Both the position numbers and the translations under genes were made by a program. A DNA stretch of 64,000 nt from Streptomyces rimosus (GTDB lineage Bacteria; Actinomycetota; Actinomycetes; Streptomycetales; Streptomycetaceae), in NCBI RefSeq assembly GCF_008704655.1, contig NZ_CP023688.1, forward strand, positions 7,818,501 to 7,882,500, written 5' to 3'. The notes beneath the pieces are model-generated. The model was given only the letters and a program-made list of their open reading frames with translations, did not search any database and was not told where the DNA came from. Below are positions 14,584 to 22,033 of this stretch, in pieces (the first letter of the stretch is position 1; each line of letters starts with the position of its first letter).

Positions 14584-14646
14584 GTGTGCAACGAACGACC
14601 GCTCGCGGACCAGGTGCGCAACGAATGTTCACGGTTGCGCAAGGAA
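14584..14646 (+). promoter_or_regulatory. Phased direct repeats (candidate AsnC/Lrp operator) upstream of the permease
   Basis: GCAACGAA at 14588 and 14618 and GCAAGGAA at 14639; each is preceded by GTGT, GCGC-like or TGC sequence (full core TGYGCAACGAA). Spacings of 30 and 21 bp put all copies on about the same helix face. The same array occurs upstream of the amidase/monooxygenase pair at 19209-19300. Confidence 0.6.
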
Positions 14647-14652
14647 CCTGCA

Positions 14653-14682
14653 TTACGGCATCTCATGACCGCCCCGTACAGT
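14653..14682 (+). promoter_or_regulatory. Candidate permease promoter
   Basis: TTACGG at 14653-14658 and TACAGT at 14677-14682, 18 bp apart, 14 bp after the start of the last repeat copy. The -35 is a weak match, the -10 a good one. GTACAG and CTGTAC at 14676 and 14689 form a small inverted repeat over the -10. Confidence 0.45.
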
Positions 14683-14824
14683 CATGCGCTGTACGTGGAG
14701 TGGCGGGGACCGCCTGCTCGGCGGTCCCCCCTTCCTTGTCGCGGGTTGTTTCGTCGTACCCGCGCACGGGGCCCGCTGTCGGTCGTCCGCCACCTTGACC
14801 GGCAGCGATGAAGGAGCCACCCCT

Positions 14825-16300
14825 GTGTTGGAGCACGGCGCAGCCCCGCCCGCGGCGGGCAGCGACCCCCGGCCACCCGTTCCCACCGGGGGCCTCGGCG
14901 CCCGCCTGATGCGGCGCAAGCCCGTCGAACGGCTGGTGGCCGAGGGCGGGCAGGGCGAGGGCGGCACCCTCCGCCGCTCGATGGGCATGTGGCAGCTGAC
15001 CATGATCAGCATCGGTGCCACGCTGGGCACCGGCATCTTCGTCGTCCTGGGCGACGCGGTGCCCAAGGCCGGCCCGGCCGTCATCCTCTCGTTCGTCATC
15101 GCCGGCATCACCGCCCTGTTCTCCGCGCTGTCCTATGCGGAGCTGGCCGGCTCCATCCCGGTCTCCGGCTCGTCGTACTCCTACGCCTACGCGACCCTCG
15201 GCGAGCTGGTCGCCTGGGTCTGCGGCTGGTGCCTGATCCTGGAGTACGGCGTCTCCGTCGCGGCCGTCGCGGTCGGCTGGGGCCAGTACCTCAACGAGCT
15301 GCTGTCCGGCACGATCGGCGTCACCCTCCCCGAGGCGCTGTCCGCGCCGCCCGGCGGCGGCGGGATCTTCAACCTCCCGGCGCTGATCGTCGTCATGCTG
15401 GCCATGGTCTTCCTGCTGGGCGGCGCCAAGGAGAGCGCCCGCGCCAACACGATCATGGTGGCCGTCAAGATCGTCGCGCTGCTGCTGTTCTGCGGCGTCG
15501 CCGCCCAGGGCATCAGCTCCGGCAACTACGCCAACTTCATGCCGCTGGGCATCGCCGGCGTCAGCGGCGCCGGGGCCACGCTCTTCTTCTCCTACATCGG
15601 CTTCGACGCCGCCTCCACCGCGGGCGAGGAGGCCAAGAACCCGCAGCGCGACCTGCCGCGCGCGATCATGCTCTCGCTGATCATCGTCACCGCGCTGTAC
15701 TGCCTGGTCGCCGCCGTGGCCGTGGGCGCCCGCCCCTGGAAGAACTTCGAGGGCTCGGAGGCCGCGCTCGCCGGCATCCTGAAGGAGGTCACCGGGCAGG
15801 GCTTCTGGTCCGTGCTGCTGGCCGCCGGCGCCGTCATCGCCATCGCCAGCGTCGTCCTGACGGTGCTCTACGGCCAGACCCGCATCCTGTTCGCGATGTC
15901 CCGCGACGGCCTGGTGCCGAAGGTGTTCTCCAAGGTCCACCCGAAGAGCGGCGCGCCGCGCACCAACACCGTCCTCGTCTCGCTGTTCTGCGGCATCCTG
16001 GCCGCCGCCATCCCGCTCGGCCAGCTCGCCGACGCCACCAGCATCGGCACCCTCTTCGCCTTCGCGCTGGTCAACATCGCGGTGATCGTGCTGCGCTTCA
16101 CCAAGCCGGACATGCCGCGCTCCTTCCGCACACCGCTGGCGCCGGTCTTCCCCGCGATCGGTTTCCTGCTCTGCCTGTACATGATGAGCAGCCTCGGTCC
16201 GGTCACCTGGGTGGTCTTCGGTGTCTGGATGGTCGTCGGGCTCGTGGTCTACTTCGTCTACGGCATGCGCCGCTCCCGATTGGCCACCGCAGAGAAGTGA
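14825..16300 (+). CDS. Amino acid permease of the APC superfamily, cationic amino acid transporter type
   Basis: 491 residues with about 12-13 membrane helices. The first helix carries the APC substrate motif GATLGTGIFVVLG; LSYAELAGSIPVSGSSYSYA, FFSYIGFDAASTAGEEAKNP and YGQTRILFAMSRDGLVP are typical of the CAT (cationic amino acid) subgroup. I set the start at the GTG at 14825, 8 nt after GAAGGAG. Likely a lysine/arginine-type proton symporter in the cytoplasmic membrane. It is followed 19 nt later by an AsnC regulator and preceded by the repeat array, which suggests amino-acid-responsive control. Confidence 0.9.
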   Translation: MLEHGAAPPAAGSDPRPPVPTGGLGARLMRRKPVERLVAEGGQGEGGTLRRSMGMWQLTMISIGATLGTGIFVVLGDAVPKAGPAVILSFVIAGITALFSALSYAELAGSIPVSGSSYSYAYATLGELVAWVCGWCLILEYGVSVAAVAVGWGQYLNELLSGTIGVTLPEALSAPPGGGGIFNLPALIVVMLAMVFLLGGAKESARANTIMVAVKIVALLLFCGVAAQGISSGNYANFMPLGIAGVSGAGATLFFSYIGFDAASTAGEEAKNPQRDLPRAIMLSLIIVTALYCLVAAVAVGARPWKNFEGSEAALAGILKEVTGQGFWSVLLAAGAVIAIASVVLTVLYGQTRILFAMSRDGLVPKVFSKVHPKSGAPRTNTVLVSLFCGILAAAIPLGQLADATSIGTLFAFALVNIAVIVLRFTKPDMPRSFRTPLAPVFPAIGFLLCLYMMSSLGPVTWVVFGVWMVVGLVVYFVYGMRRSRLATAEK

Positions 16301-16319
16301 TCCACCCGCAGTGCGACAG

Positions 16320-16769
16320 ATGAACGAACTCGACCAGCGCATCGTCCATGCCCTGGCGGAGGACGCCCGCCGCTCCTACGCCGACATCGGGGCGGAGGTC
16401 GGACTCTCCGCCCCGGCCGTCAAACGCCGGGTGGACCGGCTGCGGGCCGAGGGCGCCATCACCGGGTTCACCGTCCGGGTGGACCCGGCGGCGCTGGGCT
16501 GGGAGACCGAGGGGTTCATCGAGCTGTTCTGCCGCCGCAACACCTCGCCGGACGCCATCCACCGGGGTCTGGCGCGCTACCCGGAAGTGGCGTCCGCCTC
16601 CACCGTCACCGGTGAGGCGGACGCCATCGTCCAGGTCTTCGCCTCCGACATGCGCCACTTCGAACGCGTACTGGAACGCATCGCGGGCGAGCCGTTCGTG
16701 GAACGCACCAAGTCGGTGCTGGTCCTCTCACCACTGCTGCGGCGGTTCAGCTCGGGGTCGCCCGGGTGA
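16320..16769 (+). CDS. Lrp/AsnC-family transcriptional regulator
   Basis: 149 residues. The N-terminal HTH (YADIGAEVGLSAPAVKRRVD, about residues 20-39) is followed by the RAM ligand-binding domain (about 65-145; the VTGEADAIVQVFASDM segment is characteristic). Such proteins form octamers that bind several phased sites and respond to amino acids. It lies 19 nt after the permease and is probably cotranscribed. The ATG at 16320 is used; a GTG at 16311 is in frame and possible. It is the natural candidate for binding the phased GCAACGAA arrays at 14588 and 19209. Confidence 0.92.
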   Translation: MNELDQRIVHALAEDARRSYADIGAEVGLSAPAVKRRVDRLRAEGAITGFTVRVDPAALGWETEGFIELFCRRNTSPDAIHRGLARYPEVASASTVTGEADAIVQVFASDMRHFERVLERIAGEPFVERTKSVLVLSPLLRRFSSGSPG

Positions 16770-16899
16770 GGGGGCGGCGGTTGCCGTAACCGGTTGCGGG
16801 CGGTACGGGGCCGGGCTCCCGGGCCGGGCTTTCGGTTCCGGGCCCCTGAACCGGGCTCCGGGGCTTGGGCCTGCGGGACTTCCGCCGCCGCGCGACCGG

Positions 16900-17240
16900 G
16901 ACCAGGTGGCGCGACCCGGTGTCCGACCGGATCGGCGCGGGGACTTCCGTACCGTCTTCACCAGCGGCGGGCCGCCGTTCATCGAACTCATCGAAGGGCT
17001 CCAGGGCAGCCTCTGGGACGCCTCCGGGGGCGCGATTCGATCACATCGGATTCTGGACGGCCGATGTGCGGGCCGGCTCACGGCGGCCGGCGGAAGAAGG
17101 CATGCCCGTCGACTTCTCCGGCTGTCTGTACGGGCGGCCGTTCGCCTATCACCGTATGGACAGCGTCGGAGCCCGCCTCGAACTCGTCGACGTGAGCCGG
17201 CAGCCCGCGTTCCCCGACCGGTGGCACCCGGGCTGCGCCC
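16900..17240 (+). pseudogene. Remnant of a VOC (glyoxalase/bleomycin-resistance fold) protein gene
   Basis: Two consecutive pieces of one VOC-type protein are in different frames: about 16950-17034 encodes FRTVFTSGGPPFIELIEGLQ and what follows, and from about 17036 a second frame continues FDHIGFWTADV to DVSRQPAFPDRWHPG. One extra base (or two lost) at 17028-17036 separates them. The N-terminal part, with its first metal ligand, is absent, and no start codon with a ribosome site is seen. The remnant lies in the gap 16770-17246, whose remaining sequence shows nothing else. Confidence 0.75.
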
Positions 17241-17246
17241 CGATCC

Positions 17247-18257
17247 TCACCCCCGCCCGCTCAACCACGCCAGCACCCCGCCCAGTACGAGCAGGGCGCA
17301 GATGCCCAGGTTGACGAGTTTGTAGGAGAGGAAGACCGCGGCGAATTCGCGGATGGTGGCGCTGGGCCAGAAGTAGGCGGCGGTGGGGGCGCCGACGACC
17401 TGGCCGTTGATGCCGGCGCGGCGGGCCAGGATCGCGGCGCGCAGTACGTGGTAGTTGTTCGTGACGATCACGCAGCGGTGGTCCGGCACCGTACGTTCCA
17501 TGATCTCCTTGCTGTACGCCAGGTTCTCCTCCGTCGTGCGGGACTGCTCCTCGCACAGGATGCGGTCCGCGGGGAAGCCGCGCTCGGTCAGGTAGGCCGC
17601 CATCGCCCGGGACTCCGGGAGCTGTTCGTCCGGGCCCTGGCCGCCGGAGGTGAGCAGCAGCGGCGGGTTGCCGCGCCGCGCCTGGCGCTCGTACACGGCG
17701 CGGGCCCGCTCCAGCCGGTTGGCCAGCAGCGGCGGTACGCGCGTACCGCCGATCAGCCCGGAGCCCAGCACCACCACGAAGTCCGCGTTGCGGCGCACCC
17801 GCAGCCGCCCGTAGAGGAACGCGTAGCCGACGAAGCACAGGAAGAGGAAGGAGACGTAGCCGAGCACCAGCAGGGTCGTGGCGGAGACCACGATCAGGGT
17901 GCGCGACCCGGTGCCGGCGGCCGTGATCAGCAGGGCGGTCACCGCGAAGATCCCCAGCCCGGCCAGCAGCGACAGCAGGTTCGCCAGGCTGCGGCCTTCC
18001 TTGCGGACCATCTTCACGCCGTTGAGGATCAGGAAGACGCCGAGGACGAGGATGCCGAGCGTGGGCAGCAGGAGGATGAGCACGGCGGCCGCCACGGCCA
18101 CCGGCATCGGCAGGTGGCGCAGTTGTATGAGCAGGGCCGGGACGAGGAAGACGACGGTCAGGCCCAAGTGGACGGCGTTGCTGAAGCGGCGCCGGTCGCG
18201 CAGCACACCGACGAGGAACAGGACGAAGAAGAGGGCCGGCAGGGCGTACGCGAGCAT
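17247..18257 (-). CDS. YdcF-family (DUF218) membrane protein
   Basis: 336 residues. About four or five N-terminal helices (residues 1-145) precede the DUF218/YdcF domain (about 160-305): FVVVLGSGLIGGTRVPPLL, LLLTSGGQGPDEQLPESRAM, ILCEEQSRTTEENL and VIVTNNYHVLRAAILARRAG. A last hydrophobic helix closes the protein. Family members (SanA, ElyC, YdcF) influence envelope and cell-wall steps; the reaction is not settled. The ATG at 18257 starts the conserved MLAYALPALFF; the open frame upstream only translates a hexamer repeat. It overlaps the decayed VOC gene region at its 3' end. Confidence 0.88.
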   Translation of the reverse strand: MLAYALPALFFVLFLVGVLRDRRRFSNAVHLGLTVVFLVPALLIQLRHLPMPVAVAAAVLILLLPTLGILVLGVFLILNGVKMVRKEGRSLANLLSLLAGLGIFAVTALLITAAGTGSRTLIVVSATTLLVLGYVSFLFLCFVGYAFLYGRLRVRRNADFVVVLGSGLIGGTRVPPLLANRLERARAVYERQARRGNPPLLLTSGGQGPDEQLPESRAMAAYLTERGFPADRILCEEQSRTTEENLAYSKEIMERTVPDHRCVIVTNNYHVLRAAILARRAGINGQVVGAPTAAYFWPSATIREFAAVFLSYKLVNLGICALLVLGGVLAWLSGRG

Positions 18258-18290
18258 GGCCACATCGTAAGTCGGGCGATCATGGGCCCG

Positions 18291-18350
18291 ATGCCGATGC
18301 CGATGCCGATGCCGATGCCGATGCCGGTGCCGGTGCCGGTGCCGGTGCCG
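18291..18350. repeat. Hexanucleotide repeat (6 x ATGCCG, 4 x GTGCCG)
   Basis: Sixty bases made of six ATGCCG units followed by four GTGCCG units, located 34 bp upstream of the DUF218 start and 50 bp downstream of the next minus-strand gene. One transition separates the unit types. Confidence 0.9.
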
Positions 18351-18399
18351 CCTGCCGCGGGCACCGGCCGGCGTGCCCGGCCCCCGCGGCAGGCCGCGG

Positions 18400-19029
18400 T
18401 CAGTTCCCCGGCACCTCCCACGGCACGACCGTGAAGTCCCCGCGCTCCACCGTCTCGAACGGCGCCGAACTGACGCACTTGGGGAGATCCTTGGTGGCCG
18501 TCGGATCGTTGGTGGACGCCCAGCTGTAGCCGAGCCGGTCGGCCCGGCCCGGCCCCCGGTCGTGCACGGAGAAGCCGACCCGCTTGCCCTTGAGGCCCGC
18601 CACGTCGGTCGCGGTGACGATGCCGCTGGCCACCGCGACCTTGCCACCGGTCACCAGGCAGTCGATACGGCCCTTCGCCCAGCCGCTCGTCGTCTTGCCG
18701 ACGTGCCGGAACGCGAAGGTGCCACGTGCCTTGTCGGGCATCTCGTCCTGGCGGAAGCGCGCGTCGAAGGAGAAGCGGACATCGTCGCCGTCGGCCCGGC
18801 GGAGCTTCGCCGACCCGGTCAGCCGCGCGTCGGCGGGCTGGTGGGCGGCGCTCTGCGCGGCGGTGGCGCGCGGCACCGGGTGCGCCGCGTCGGGCGGGGG
18901 TACGGCGAGCGCGGAGCCGCCCGCCCCCGCGGCCAGCAGGACCGCCGCCGAAACGGCGACGAGCCGGAGACATCTGCGGGCGGTGCTGCGAGTGGTGTGG
19001 GTGCGGTGACGGCGGTCCGAACGGTTCAT
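18400..19029 (-). CDS. Secreted protein of unknown function
   Basis: 209 residues from the ATG at 19029 (GGGGGAAG lies 6 nt upstream). An Arg-rich N-terminus and a hydrophobic stretch (VAVSAAVLLAAGAGGSALA, about residues 25-43) form a signal peptide. The mature part has repeated beta-like segments (DDVRFSFDARF, RGTFAFRHVG, ASGIVTATDVAGLKGKRVGF) and two cysteines (DCLV, KCVS) that may pair. I do not recognise a named domain. It is transcribed divergently from the amidase gene, so the phased repeats at 19209-19300 could also affect it. Confidence 0.75.
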   Translation of the reverse strand: MNRSDRRHRTHTTRSTARRCLRLVAVSAAVLLAAGAGGSALAVPPPDAAHPVPRATAAQSAAHQPADARLTGSAKLRRADGDDVRFSFDARFRQDEMPDKARGTFAFRHVGKTTSGWAKGRIDCLVTGGKVAVASGIVTATDVAGLKGKRVGFSVHDRGPGRADRLGYSWASTNDPTATKDLPKCVSSAPFETVERGDFTVVPWEVPGN

Positions 19030-19208
19030 GAGGATCTTCCCCCGACGCAATCGTGAGCGTTCACCCGGACTCTCCGGGCGCCTCGTACGATGCCGTCCGG
19101 CCGGGTGCGCCACATCGGGCCCGGGAGCGATCCCCGTTCCGCCGCGCGGGGGACCGCCCTGCGACCGGAGGCGTACCGGGGGAGCGGATGCCCTCCGCAC
19201 GGCGGCGT

Positions 19209-19300
19209 GCAACCCGCGGCACGCCCCGGGGCGCCGGGCGCAACGAATCGCCGTACCGGCCGTACAACACGCAACGAAACAGCCATCGGCACGCAATGGT
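19209..19300 (+). promoter_or_regulatory. Phased direct repeats (candidate AsnC/Lrp operator) upstream of the davAB-like pair
   Basis: GCAACCCG at 19209, GCAACGAA at 19240 and 19271, and GCAATGGT at 19293; spacings 31, 31 and 22 bp. The last three copies mirror the array at 14588-14646 (30 and 21 bp). Confidence 0.6.
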
Positions 19301-19306
19301 GACGTC

Positions 19307-19336
19307 TTGTACGGGGGGTTCGGCGGACCGTACCGT
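19307..19336 (+). promoter_or_regulatory. Candidate promoter of the davAB-like pair
   Basis: TTGTAC at 19307-19312 and TACCGT at 19331-19336, 18 bp apart; the -35 starts 14 bp after the start of the last repeat copy, exactly as at the permease. Confidence 0.5.
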
Positions 19337-19427: not shown

Positions 19428-20225
19428 ATGTCGTCGCTGCGCACCGCCCTGCTCCAGAGTTCGGGACGGCCCGGCGACGTCGCGCGGAACCTGCGGGCCG
19501 TCGAGGACGCGGCGCGCGAGGCGGCGGCGGGCGGTGCCGGGCTGCTCGTCTGCCCGGAGCTGTTCCTGACCGGCTACGCCATCGGTGAGGACCTGCACAG
19601 GCTCGCCGAACCCGCCGACGGCCCGGCCGCCCGGACGGTGGCCCGAATGGCCGCCGAACACGGCATCGCGGTGCTCTACGGCTACCCGGAGCGCGACGGC
19701 GCGACGGTCTACAACTCGGCACAGCTGATCGGCCCCGATGGGCAGCCGCTGGCCAACTACCGCAAGACCCACCTCTTCGGCTGCTTCGAGCGCGAGTGGT
19801 TCACGCCCGGGGACGAGCCGGTCGTCCAGGCAGAGCTGGACGGTCTCCGGATCGGCCTGATGATCTGCTACGACGTGGAATTCCCGGAGAACGTCCGCGC
19901 CCACGCGCTGGCCGGCACCGACCTGCTGCTGGTGCCCACCGCCCAGCTGCACCCCTTCCAGTTCGTCGCCGAATCGCTCATTCCGGTACGGGCCTTCGAG
20001 AGCCAGCTCTACATCGCCTACGTCAACCGGACCGGCCCGGAGGGCGATTTCGAGTTCGTCGGGCTGAGCTGCCTGGCCGGGCCCGACGGCACCGTGCGCG
20101 CCCGCGCCGGACGCGGCGAGGAGCTGGTGTTCGGCGACGTGGACGCCGCTCTCCTCAAGCGGTCGCGGGAGGACAATCCGTACCTCGCCGACCGGCGCCC
20201 GGGCCTCTACGGCGCGCTGACCTGA
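19428..20225 (+). CDS. davA: Carbon-nitrogen hydrolase, probable 5-aminovaleramide amidohydrolase (DavA-like)
   Basis: 265 residues of the nitrilase superfamily with the Glu-Lys-Cys triad: Glu44 in CPELFLTGY, Lys113 in NYRKTHLFG, Cys147 in ICYDVEFPEN. Length and motifs (CPE-FLTGY-IG, LAE-ADGPAA, VYGYPER, SNYRKTHLFG, ICYD-EFPEN) closely follow Pseudomonas putida DavA as I remember it, which hydrolyses 5-aminovaleramide to 5-aminovalerate. The gene is 122 nt upstream of a DavB-like flavoenzyme, which would make the amide. The ATG at 19428 follows GAGGGG. Other amides cannot be excluded. Confidence 0.85.
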   Translation: MSSLRTALLQSSGRPGDVARNLRAVEDAAREAAAGGAGLLVCPELFLTGYAIGEDLHRLAEPADGPAARTVARMAAEHGIAVLYGYPERDGATVYNSAQLIGPDGQPLANYRKTHLFGCFEREWFTPGDEPVVQAELDGLRIGLMICYDVEFPENVRAHALAGTDLLLVPTAQLHPFQFVAESLIPVRAFESQLYIAYVNRTGPEGDFEFVGLSCLAGPDGTVRARAGRGEELVFGDVDAALLKRSREDNPYLADRRPGLYGALT

Positions 20226-20347: not shown

Positions 20348-22033
20348 ATGACCGTGCCCACCGCCGCCCAGCACGCGGACGCCCAGCCGCCCATCACCAT
20401 GTTCGGGCCGGACTTCCCGTACGCGTACGACGACTTCCTCGCCCACCCGGCGGGCCTCGGCCAGGTGCCCGCGACCGAGCACGGCAAGGAGGTCGCCGTC
20501 ATCGGCGGCGGCCTGTCCGGGATCATCACGGCGTACGAGCTGATGAAGATGGGCCTCAAGCCCGTCGTCTACGAGGCGGACCAGATAGGCGGCCGGCTGC
20601 GCACCGTCGGCTTCGAGGGCTGCGACCCGGAGCTGACCGCCGAGATGGGCGCGATGCGCTTCCCGCCGTCCTCCACGGCGCTCCAGCACTACATCGACCT
20701 CGTCGGCCTGAAGACCAAGCCGTTCCCCAACCCGCTCGCGCCCGACACCCCCTCCACGGTCGTCGACCTCAAGGGCGAGACCCACTACGCGCGCACCGTC
20801 GAGGACCTGCCCGAGGTCTACCACCAGGTCATGGACGCCTGGAACGCCTGCCTGGAGGAGGGCGCGGACTTCTCCGACATGAACCGCGCCATCCGCGAGC
20901 GCGATGTGCCGCGCATCCGGGAGATCTGGTCGCGCCTGGTCGAGAAGCTCGACAACCAGACCTTCTACGGGTACCTCTGCGACTCCACCGCCTTCAAGTC
21001 CTTCCGGCACCGCGAGATCTTCGGCCAGGTCGGCTTCGGCACCGGCGGCTGGGACACCGACTTCCCCAACTCCATCCTGGAGATCCTGCGCGTCGTCTAC
21101 ACCGAGGCCGACGACCACCACCGCGGCATCGTCGGCGGCAGCCAGCAGCTGCCGCTGCGCCTGTGGGAGCGCGAGCCGGAGAAGCTCGTCCACTGGGCGC
21201 CGGGCACCTCGCTGTCCTCCCTGCACGACGGTACGCCGCGCCCGGCGGTCACCCGGCTGCACCGCACGGCGGGCAACCGCATCACCGTCACCGACGCCGA
21301 CGGCGACATCCGTACGTACGAGGCGGCCGTCTTCACCGCGCAGTCCTGGATGCTGCTGTCGAAGATCGCCTGTGACGACGCGCTGTTCCCCATCGACCAC
21401 TGGACGGCGATGGAGCGCACCCACTACATGGAGTCGTCCAAGCTGTTCGTCCCCGTGGACCGGCCGTTCTGGCTGGACAAGGACGAGGAGACCGGCCGGG
21501 ACGTCATGAGCATGACGCTCACCGACCGGATGACCCGCGGCACCTACCTGCTCGACGACGGCCCCGACAAGCCGGCCGTCATCTGCCTCTCGTACACGTG
21601 GTGCGACGACAGCCTCAAGTGGCTGCCGCTGAACGCCAACGACCGTATGGAGGTCATGCTCAAGTCGCTCTCGGAGATCTATCCGAAGGTCGACATCAGG
21701 AAGCACATCATCGGCAACCCGGTGACCGTCTCCTGGGAGAACGAGCCGTACTTCATGGGCGCGTTCAAGGCCAACCTGCCCGGCCACTACCGCTACCAGC
21801 GGCGCCTGTTCACCCACTTCATGCAGGACCGGCTGCCCGAGGACAAGCGCGGCCTCTTCCTCGCGGGCGACGACATCTCCTGGACGGCCGGCTGGGCCGA
21901 GGGCGCCGTACAGACCGCGCTGAACGCGGTGTGGGGCGTGATGACCCACTTCGGCGGCAGCACGGACGCGGCCAACCCGGGCCCCGGCGACGTGTACGAC
22001 GAGATCGCGCCGGTCGAGCTGCCGGAGGACTGA
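20348..22033 (+). CDS. davB: Flavin monooxygenase/amine oxidase, probable L-lysine 2-monooxygenase (DavB-like)
   Basis: 561 residues. The FAD-binding GxGxxG is in VIGGGLSGIITAYELMKMG (about residues 50-68), with a second FAD motif GDDISWTAGWAEGAVQTALN near the C-terminus. The start (PITMFGPDFPYAYDDFL) and end (HFGG, NPGPGDVYDEI) match lysine 2-monooxygenase of Pseudomonas (DavB), as does the length; tryptophan 2-monooxygenase IaaM is a more distant relative. Expected reaction: L-lysine plus O2 to 5-aminovaleramide, CO2 and water. Downstream transaminase and dehydrogenase for 5-aminovalerate are not in this window. Confidence 0.85.
   Translation: MTVPTAAQHADAQPPITMFGPDFPYAYDDFLAHPAGLGQVPATEHGKEVAVIGGGLSGIITAYELMKMGLKPVVYEADQIGGRLRTVGFEGCDPELTAEMGAMRFPPSSTALQHYIDLVGLKTKPFPNPLAPDTPSTVVDLKGETHYARTVEDLPEVYHQVMDAWNACLEEGADFSDMNRAIRERDVPRIREIWSRLVEKLDNQTFYGYLCDSTAFKSFRHREIFGQVGFGTGGWDTDFPNSILEILRVVYTEADDHHRGIVGGSQQLPLRLWEREPEKLVHWAPGTSLSSLHDGTPRPAVTRLHRTAGNRITVTDADGDIRTYEAAVFTAQSWMLLSKIACDDALFPIDHWTAMERTHYMESSKLFVPVDRPFWLDKDEETGRDVMSMTLTDRMTRGTYLLDDGPDKPAVICLSYTWCDDSLKWLPLNANDRMEVMLKSLSEIYPKVDIRKHIIGNPVTVSWENEPYFMGAFKANLPGHYRYQRRLFTHFMQDRLPEDKRGLFLAGDDISWTAGWAEGAVQTALNAVWGVMTHFGGSTDAANPGPGDVYDEIAPVELPED

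What the first reader, a model, noticed from the sequence alone, without database searches (positions are those of the whole stretch)
14584..19336. Same phased repeat array in front of an amino acid permease and a DavA/DavB-like pair
GCAACGAA-type copies lie at 14588, 14618, 14639 and at 19240, 19271, 19293 (plus a diverged copy at 19209). Spacings are 30/21 and 31/22 bp, multiples of helical turns. In both places a possible -35 starts exactly 14 bp after the start of the last copy, and the -10 follows with 18-bp spacing (TACAGT, TACCGT). Such parallel architecture 4.6 kb apart is unlikely by chance. The Lrp/AsnC protein cotranscribed with the permease is the natural binder, since these octamers bind several phased sites.
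Basis: partly seen in the sequence, partly recalled or inferred. Interest (0 to 1): 0.85.

Follow-up and report, generated by a model that had tools for sequence, protein, structure and literature searches.

The report
Conserved switch for Streptomyces lysine degradation
The same evenly spaced DNA repeats sit in front of a Streptomyces amino acid importer gene and its lysine-breakdown genes and are kept, at nearly fixed spacing, in most of the related genomes examined, which marks them as landing sites of one regulator, most likely the Lrp-type protein encoded right behind the importer.

Summary
All four exact GCAACGAA in the window lie in the two promoters. In Streptomyces relatives (80 loci) the davA promoter has GCAA cores 67, 36 and 14 bp before the -35 (75, 77, 78 of 78); the permease promoter has them at 65, 35 and 14 bp (63, 64, 64 of 65). 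The three-site davA pattern occurs in 266 of 295 same-genus genomes. Of the other 29 plus one more, 9 lack DavB and also the Lrp orthologue; 21 have both, and the 20 readable davA upstreams keep two or three units.

Best reading: an Lrp/AsnC regulator, encoded behind the permease, binds phased sites abutting the -35 and controls uptake and DavAB degradation of lysine, probably as a lysine-responsive activator. Binder, ligand and sign are inferred. The units are mostly asymmetric direct repeats, which also suits an AraC-type protein, but Lrp is the only DNA-binding protein among 16 scanned neighbours. The 'diverged copy' at 19209 is not conserved. Known in kind, unusually well conserved; no description found in ten paper searches.

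The parts
14588..14595 (+). permease promoter, distal site P1 (GCAACGAA)
   Evidence: GCAA conserved in 63 of 65 relatives at -65 from the -35 start
14618..14625 (+). permease promoter, middle site P2 (GCAACGAA), 30 bp after P1
   Evidence: 64 of 65
14639..14646 (+). permease promoter, proximal site P3 (GCAAGGAA), 21 bp after P2, 14 bp before the -35
   Evidence: 64 of 65
14653..14682 (+). predicted permease promoter: -35 TTACGG, 18-bp spacer, -10 TACAGT
   Evidence: TTAC and a TA...T-type -10 conserved in the alignment of 65 loci
14825..16300 (+). APC-family amino acid permease (CAT/GkApcT-like)
   Evidence: TIGR00909 above cut-off; PF13520, PF13906; nearest solved relatives 5oqt and cationic amino acid transporters
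16320..16769 (+). Lrp/AsnC-family regulator, 19 bp after the permease stop, proposed binder
   Evidence: PF13404 + PF01037; only close copy in the genome, next best 33% identity
19240..19247 (+). davA promoter, distal site D1 (GCAACGAA, extended GCGCAACGAATCGCCG)
   Evidence: GCAA in 75 of 78 relatives
19271..19278 (+). davA promoter, middle site D2, 31 bp after D1
   Evidence: 77 of 78
19293..19300 (+). davA promoter, proximal site D3 (GCAATGGT), 22 bp after D2, 14 bp before the -35
   Evidence: 78 of 78
19307..19336 (+). predicted davA promoter: -35 TTGTAC (CTTGTCC in most of 78 relatives), 18-bp spacer, -10 TACCGT
19428..20225 (+). davA-like carbon-nitrogen hydrolase (proposed 5-aminovaleramidase)
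   Evidence: PF00795; amidase/nitrilase relatives
20348..22033 (+). davB-like flavin amine oxidoreductase (proposed L-lysine 2-monooxygenase)
   Evidence: best solved relative 3we0 L-amino acid oxidase/monooxygenase, E 9.5e-241, residues 9-558

Best explanation
Shown: two promoters share an array of ~10-bp units (gCGCAAYGAW) two or three helical turns apart, the last unit lying next to the -35, and this layout is kept across most of the genus. Inferred: the Lrp/AsnC protein encoded behind the permease binds the units as a multimer lying along one face of the DNA, touches RNA polymerase at the -35, and raises transcription of permease-lrp (uptake plus positive autoregulation) and davAB (lysine to 5-aminovalerate) when lysine is plentiful. 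Rough likelihoods: array is a real cis-regulatory element 0.98; Lrp is the binder 0.75; activator rather than repressor 0.7; lysine or a near relative is the effector 0.65.
For: Site cores are 94% and promoter hexamers 96% identical in pairwise comparison, the columns outside sites and promoter 42%. Of 105 exact CGCAACGAA on both strands of the loci, 102 lie within 400 bp upstream of davA, permease or lrp on the sense strand. Three-site davA pattern in 266 of 295 genomes; the reversed control shows 2 hits in the table. Lrp and DavB go together: 21 of 21 against 0 of 9 (in one of the 21, G026, the Lrp frame holds a stop); in a 40-genome set that shares four genomes with these, Lrp in 37 of 38 DavB-positive and 0 of 2 DavB-negative. 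Where the permease is not found between guaB1 and lrp (L176, L067), lrp is still there just before davA and its array. In another family (f17) an Lrp (60-63%) lies beside or near davB in 8 of 9 stretches (the ninth, L155, ends at a contig end), and davA has GCAA pairs 31 bp apart in 5 of the 8 readable and 22 bp apart in one. In G028 davA, davB and perm-lrp are Mb apart, yet davA and permease keep the sites. A review (PMC2995911, passages seen) reports Lrp-type site spacing of two or three helical turns on one face.
Against: The averaged unit is not a clear palindrome; only D1 is a good 15-bp pseudo-palindrome, whereas Lrp sites are described as semi-palindromic. In G044 DavB and the array are present but no Lrp was found (1300 contigs). 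The upstreams of five 52-56% Lrp paralogues have no GCAA array (L106, L191, L192, L195, L196). The tree does not resolve whether the f17 Lrp is the orthologue, and the f17 permease promoters show mostly one GCAA core, not the 30/21 array. Co-loss of neighbouring genes can be one deletion. Sign and ligand untested.
Confidence: 0.62

Rival explanations
1. Another regulator, for example an AraC/XylS-type activator encoded elsewhere, binds the units as direct repeats about 21 bp apart next to the -35; Lrp only accompanies the permease.
For: Units are asymmetric and all in one orientation; 21/22-bp direct repeats abutting the -35 are, from recall, a hallmark of AraC/XylS activators.
Against: Among 16 proteins of window 8.9-26.9 kb scanned against Pfam only Lrp has a DNA-binding domain. 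Lrp is kept before davA even where the permease is not found at the locus (L067, L176). The 30/31-bp steps fit Lrp-type spacing too.
Confidence: 0.2
2. Lrp binds the array but represses both operons, and lysine releases it.
For: Sites abut the -35, and a multimer could exclude polymerase or wrap DNA; autorepression is common for Lrp proteins (recalled).
Against: The conserved units lie upstream of the -35, none over the -10; a published regulator that activates GABA use, GabR, also binds immediately upstream of the -35, called there a typical activator position (PMC7652997, passages).
Confidence: 0.2
3. Chance similarity or shared ancestry of two promoters without function.
For: Units are short; related genomes share sequence; the one-mismatch count in the window is not enriched.
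Against: Surrounding sequence is not conserved while units and spacing are; 266 of 295 genomes carry the davA array.
Confidence: 0.01

Closest known systems
Lrp/AsnC (feast/famine) local regulators of amino acid catabolism, e.g. BkdR of Pseudomonas (recalled)
   Same: AsnC-type HTH plus ligand domain; several sites two or three helical turns apart; gene beside the amino acid genes it would control
   Different: Units here are mostly asymmetric direct repeats in one orientation with a fixed distance to the -35; target is lysine uptake and DavAB; no binding data
Pseudomonas davBA lysine 2-monooxygenase pathway
   Same: DavB- and DavA-type enzymes encoded side by side
   Different: In a paper that my searches listed on the downstream part of this route (PMC6667623, title and start of abstract only), glutarate catabolism is under GntR- and LysR-type regulators; an Lrp link for davAB was not found
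AraC/XylS activators (recalled)
   Same: Direct repeats about 21 bp apart, proximal one beside the -35
   Different: No such protein found among the 16 neighbours scanned; additional 30/31-bp steps

Membership tests
Lrp/AsnC regulators | AsnC-type HTH and AsnC ligand-binding (RAM) domain | tested here: met
   PF13404 62 bits, PF01037 53.9 bits, both above gathering cut-offs
Lrp/AsnC regulators | multiple target sites on one helical face, two or three turns apart | tested here: met
   21/22 and 30/31 bp steps, kept across most of the genus; criterion from PMC2995911 passages. Met for the DNA; that this protein binds it is not shown
Lrp/AsnC regulators | semi-palindromic 13-15 bp dimer site | tested here: inconclusive
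   D1 clearly pseudo-palindromic, mean unit not
Lrp/AsnC regulators | octamer/dimer assembly, amino acid ligand, DNA binding | not testable with these tools
   needs protein work
L-lysine 2-monooxygenase (DavB) | full-length homology to the oxidase/monooxygenase 3we0 | tested here: met
   E 9.5e-241 over residues 9-558; lysine specificity of 3we0 is recalled
5-aminovaleramidase (DavA) | nitrilase-superfamily amidase beside davB; activity on 5-aminovaleramide | tested here: inconclusive
   PF00795 met and adjacent to davB; no NCBIfam model above its cut-off; activity untested
AraC/XylS activator system | cognate AraC-type protein encoded nearby or co-occurring | tested here: inconclusive
   none among the 16 neighbours scanned; the rest of the genome not scanned

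The most novel reading that the evidence does not exclude
A subfamily of Lrp/AsnC proteins reads asymmetric units in direct repeat, at alternating two- and three-turn steps and in a fixed register with the -35, acting as a class-II-like activator complex dedicated to lysine uptake and DavAB degradation throughout Streptomyces. This would be a binding mode unlike the palindromic Lrp dimer site.
Probability: 0.35. Interest if true: 0.62.

Novelty: new member of a known kind. Interest (0 to 1): 0.45.

Why it matters
It predicts a small regulon, permease-lrp and davAB, for lysine uptake and oxidation in antibiotic-producing actinomycetes. It gives a clean natural dataset (hundreds of promoters with near-fixed geometry) for how a feast/famine regulator measures DNA and touches polymerase. 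The array could serve as a lysine-responsive promoter part if the ligand is confirmed.

Tried and rejected
Chance: rejected. The copy at 19209: rejected, 0 of 78. Further regulon members: the pair pattern gave 133 hits in 41 genomes against 22 of the reversed control (my sums from the table; 39 of 41 genomes had a hit). Besides davA and permease I saw by eye two other recurrent kinds: a 29-bp step in several genomes and a 21-bp step in three (G027, G029, G041). Read in 6 loci (L107-L111, L113), they lie by other genes and contain inverted TTGC halves, so I take them for other regulators' sites, but membership in this regulon is not excluded; single or weaker sites would be missed. For that reason I dropped the idea that the palindrome GCAACGATCGTTGC seen there shows a general Lrp site. 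Own-genome extra hits: two lie in ORFs (L114, L115), one in no listed ORF (L116). Leader hairpin of the permease as attenuator: strong in some relatives but not general, median z -1.1, 16 of 65 below -2. My genus-wide permease pattern was mis-spaced by three bases (4 instead of 7 N before the -35); its 2 of 295 result is uninformative, and permease conservation rests on the 65 aligned loci (15 of 80 dropped: permease not found in the stretch, its start not matched, or upstream cut). davA counts rest on 78 of 80 loci (L008, L066 cut). The davA rows were anchored on the D1/D2 pair, so their 31-bp step is partly built in; D3, -35 and -10 were not used for anchoring, and one search used no anchor. 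A tree of Lrp proteins did not settle orthology with family f17. Literature: ten searches answered listed no paper whose title or abstract start describes this regulator or array; (the bare 8-mer) found 593 papers, 30 of them listed, which I did not open; the SCO numbers are recalled and may be wrong; most subscription papers are not held. Passages of PMC13118837 on Lrp/AsnC clusters did not concern this locus.
Full report
Setting. The window lies in a 9.36-Mb genome that I take for a Streptomyces because the closest named locus is Streptomyces rimosus, DavB 99% identical; 'same genus' genomes below are unnamed. Gene order is guaB1 - amino acid permease - Lrp/AsnC regulator - (reverse: DUF218 protein, a protein without a family match) - davA-like amidase - davB-like flavoprotein. 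DavB matches the L-amino acid oxidase/monooxygenase 3we0 along its length (that this enzyme acts on lysine is recalled). The permease is closest to 5oqt (GkApcT, name recalled) and cationic amino acid transporters.

Observation. Exact GCAACGAA occurs four times in 64 kb, all in the two promoters; 0.8 expected, 0 of 100 shuffles reached four. With one mismatch there is no excess in the window as a whole. In the whole genome the paired pattern occurs seven times, four of them here, against four hits of the reversed control.

Conservation. Eighty loci were fetched by the DavB protein, all Streptomyces. Exact GCAACGAA in the 330 bp upstream was found in 70 of 78 davA, 28 of 65 permease, 0 of 57 guaB1, 0 of 79 davB and 0 of 69 lrp upstreams. 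With the GCAA core as criterion, the positions relative to the start of the -35 are: davA -67 (75 of 78), -36 (77), -14 (78); permease -65 (63 of 65), -35 (64), -14 (64), and in 21 of 65 a fourth at -86 (where permease offsets are counted from GCATTACG, 3 bp earlier). All three davA cores together: 74 of 78; all three permease cores: 63 of 65. Site cores are 94% and promoter hexamers 96% identical pairwise; the columns outside sites and promoter 42%. Exact CGCAACGAA occurs 105 times on both strands of these loci, and 102 of these lie in the 400 bp upstream of davA, permease or lrp on the sense strand.

Genus-wide. A fixed three-site davA pattern (steps 31 and 22, up to one mismatch) is found in 266 of 295 genomes, once each except for three genomes with two; the reversed control shows two hits in the table. 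I examined the 29 without it plus G289, a same-genus genome without DavB met. Nine lack a DavB match at 1e-60; two of these nine are only 78 and 82% complete. All nine also lack the Lrp orthologue (no match, or best match about 1e-43 to 1e-45 at 53-54% identity, the level of a paralogue). The other 21 have both, though in G026 the Lrp frame holds a stop. For 20 of these 21 the davA upstream could be read: it shows two or three recognisable units, with mismatches or a step shifted by one base; in G417 davA is not in the stretch. In a 40-genome set (four genomes shared with the 30: G024, G026, G053, G289) Lrp (1e-55) is in 37 of 38 with DavB and 0 of 2 without; the exception, G044, is a 1300-contig assembly. 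In G026 the davA array has also lost its third unit; one case only.

Unlinking. In G028 davA, davB and perm-lrp lie megabases apart; the array stays at davA, two sites 30 bp apart at the permease, and none at davB. In G039 perm-lrp and davAB are 1.3 Mb apart, and davA keeps its array. In L067 and L176 no permease is found between guaB1 and lrp; lrp stands just before davA.

Outside the genus. Of 296 genomes of the class, 44 have DavB, 17 of them outside the genus. I took stretches around 19 matches: 18 outside the genus (G304 twice) and one second copy in a same-genus genome. In family f17 (9 genomes, unnamed) permease-davA-davB stand together in 8 (L156 is cut), and an Lrp of 60-63% lies nearby in 8 (L155 is cut). 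davA could be read in 8: 5 have GCAA cores 31 bp apart, one 22 bp apart, one a single core and one none; the f17 permease promoters show mostly one core, not the 30/21 array. In the other ten stretches no Lrp matched at 1e-8, and in the six of them where davA was found no array precedes it; Lrp elsewhere in those genomes was not sought. The tree leaves the f17 Lrp next to, but not firmly with, the Streptomyces one; residues such as TVTGEADA and RTKS are shared between window and L150 but not with the L192 paralogue.

Who binds. Among 16 proteins of the 8.9-26.9 kb region scanned against Pfam, Lrp is the only one with a DNA-binding domain; two had no match. It is the only close copy in the genome (next 33%). 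A review of Lrp-type regulators states centre-to-centre spacings of two or three helical turns and same-face binding (PMC2995911, passages); 21/22 and 30/31 bp fit. Against this, the averaged unit gCGCAAYGAW is asymmetric; only D1 (GCAACGAATCGCCGC) is a good pseudo-palindrome. The upstreams of five 52-56% paralogues show no array (L106, L191, L192, L195, L196), while a third relative (L193, L194) has many GCAA/TTGC upstream of its own gene. An AraC-type binder therefore stays open.

How it may work. The proximal unit lies next to the -35 and further units lie upstream on the same face at both promoters; no conserved unit covers the -10. That is a usual place of an activator (GabR of Corynebacterium, a PucR-type regulator, is described so; PMC7652997, passages). 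I therefore favour lysine-dependent activation with positive autoregulation of the permease-lrp operon. The regulator, the ligand and the sign are inference.

Verdict. A real, deeply conserved pair of regulated promoters, of a known kind. Two other recurrent GCAA-type arrays were seen in some relatives and look like other regulators' sites, but were not excluded from this regulon. No paper describing the array was found in ten searches of the held library.

Noticed in passing
window 18290-18349: Run of GATGCC/GGTGCC hexamers just upstream of the start of the reverse-strand DUF218 gene.
   Followed up: no
window 14702-14735: Strong GC-rich hairpin in the permease leader (GGGGACCGCC-TGCTC-GGCGGTCCCC); leader folding is strong in some relatives but not general in 65.
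   Followed up: partly
window 16865-17314: Small frame that looks to my eye like a glyoxalase/VOC remnant between lrp and the DUF218 gene; no Pfam match.
   Followed up: no
L107, L113 (also seen in G020, G031, G032, G033, G054): A different phased array, CGCAACGAAC..TGTTGCC..GAACGCAACG with a 29-bp step, recurs in several relatives, in L107 and L113 near a gene whose protein begins MPGGRLTQQERQQIA.
   Followed up: partly
L108, L110, L111: GCAAYG-type repeats with a 21-bp step and inverted TTGC halves beside a sugar-kinase-like gene (by eye); in L110 and L111 the other flank is a gene for a RLAEERVDHRFKGLPP protein. Probably another regulator's site, not proven.
   Followed up: partly
L166 (G348:C10), L217-L221, G047:C1:1491711, G051:C7:240478: Some relatives carry a second DavB-like protein, 61-64% identical; the one stretch examined (L166) has no array near it.
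   Followed up: partly
L193, L194: A third Lrp relative (about 50%) has many GCAA/TTGC words in the 110 bp upstream of its own gene.
   Followed up: no
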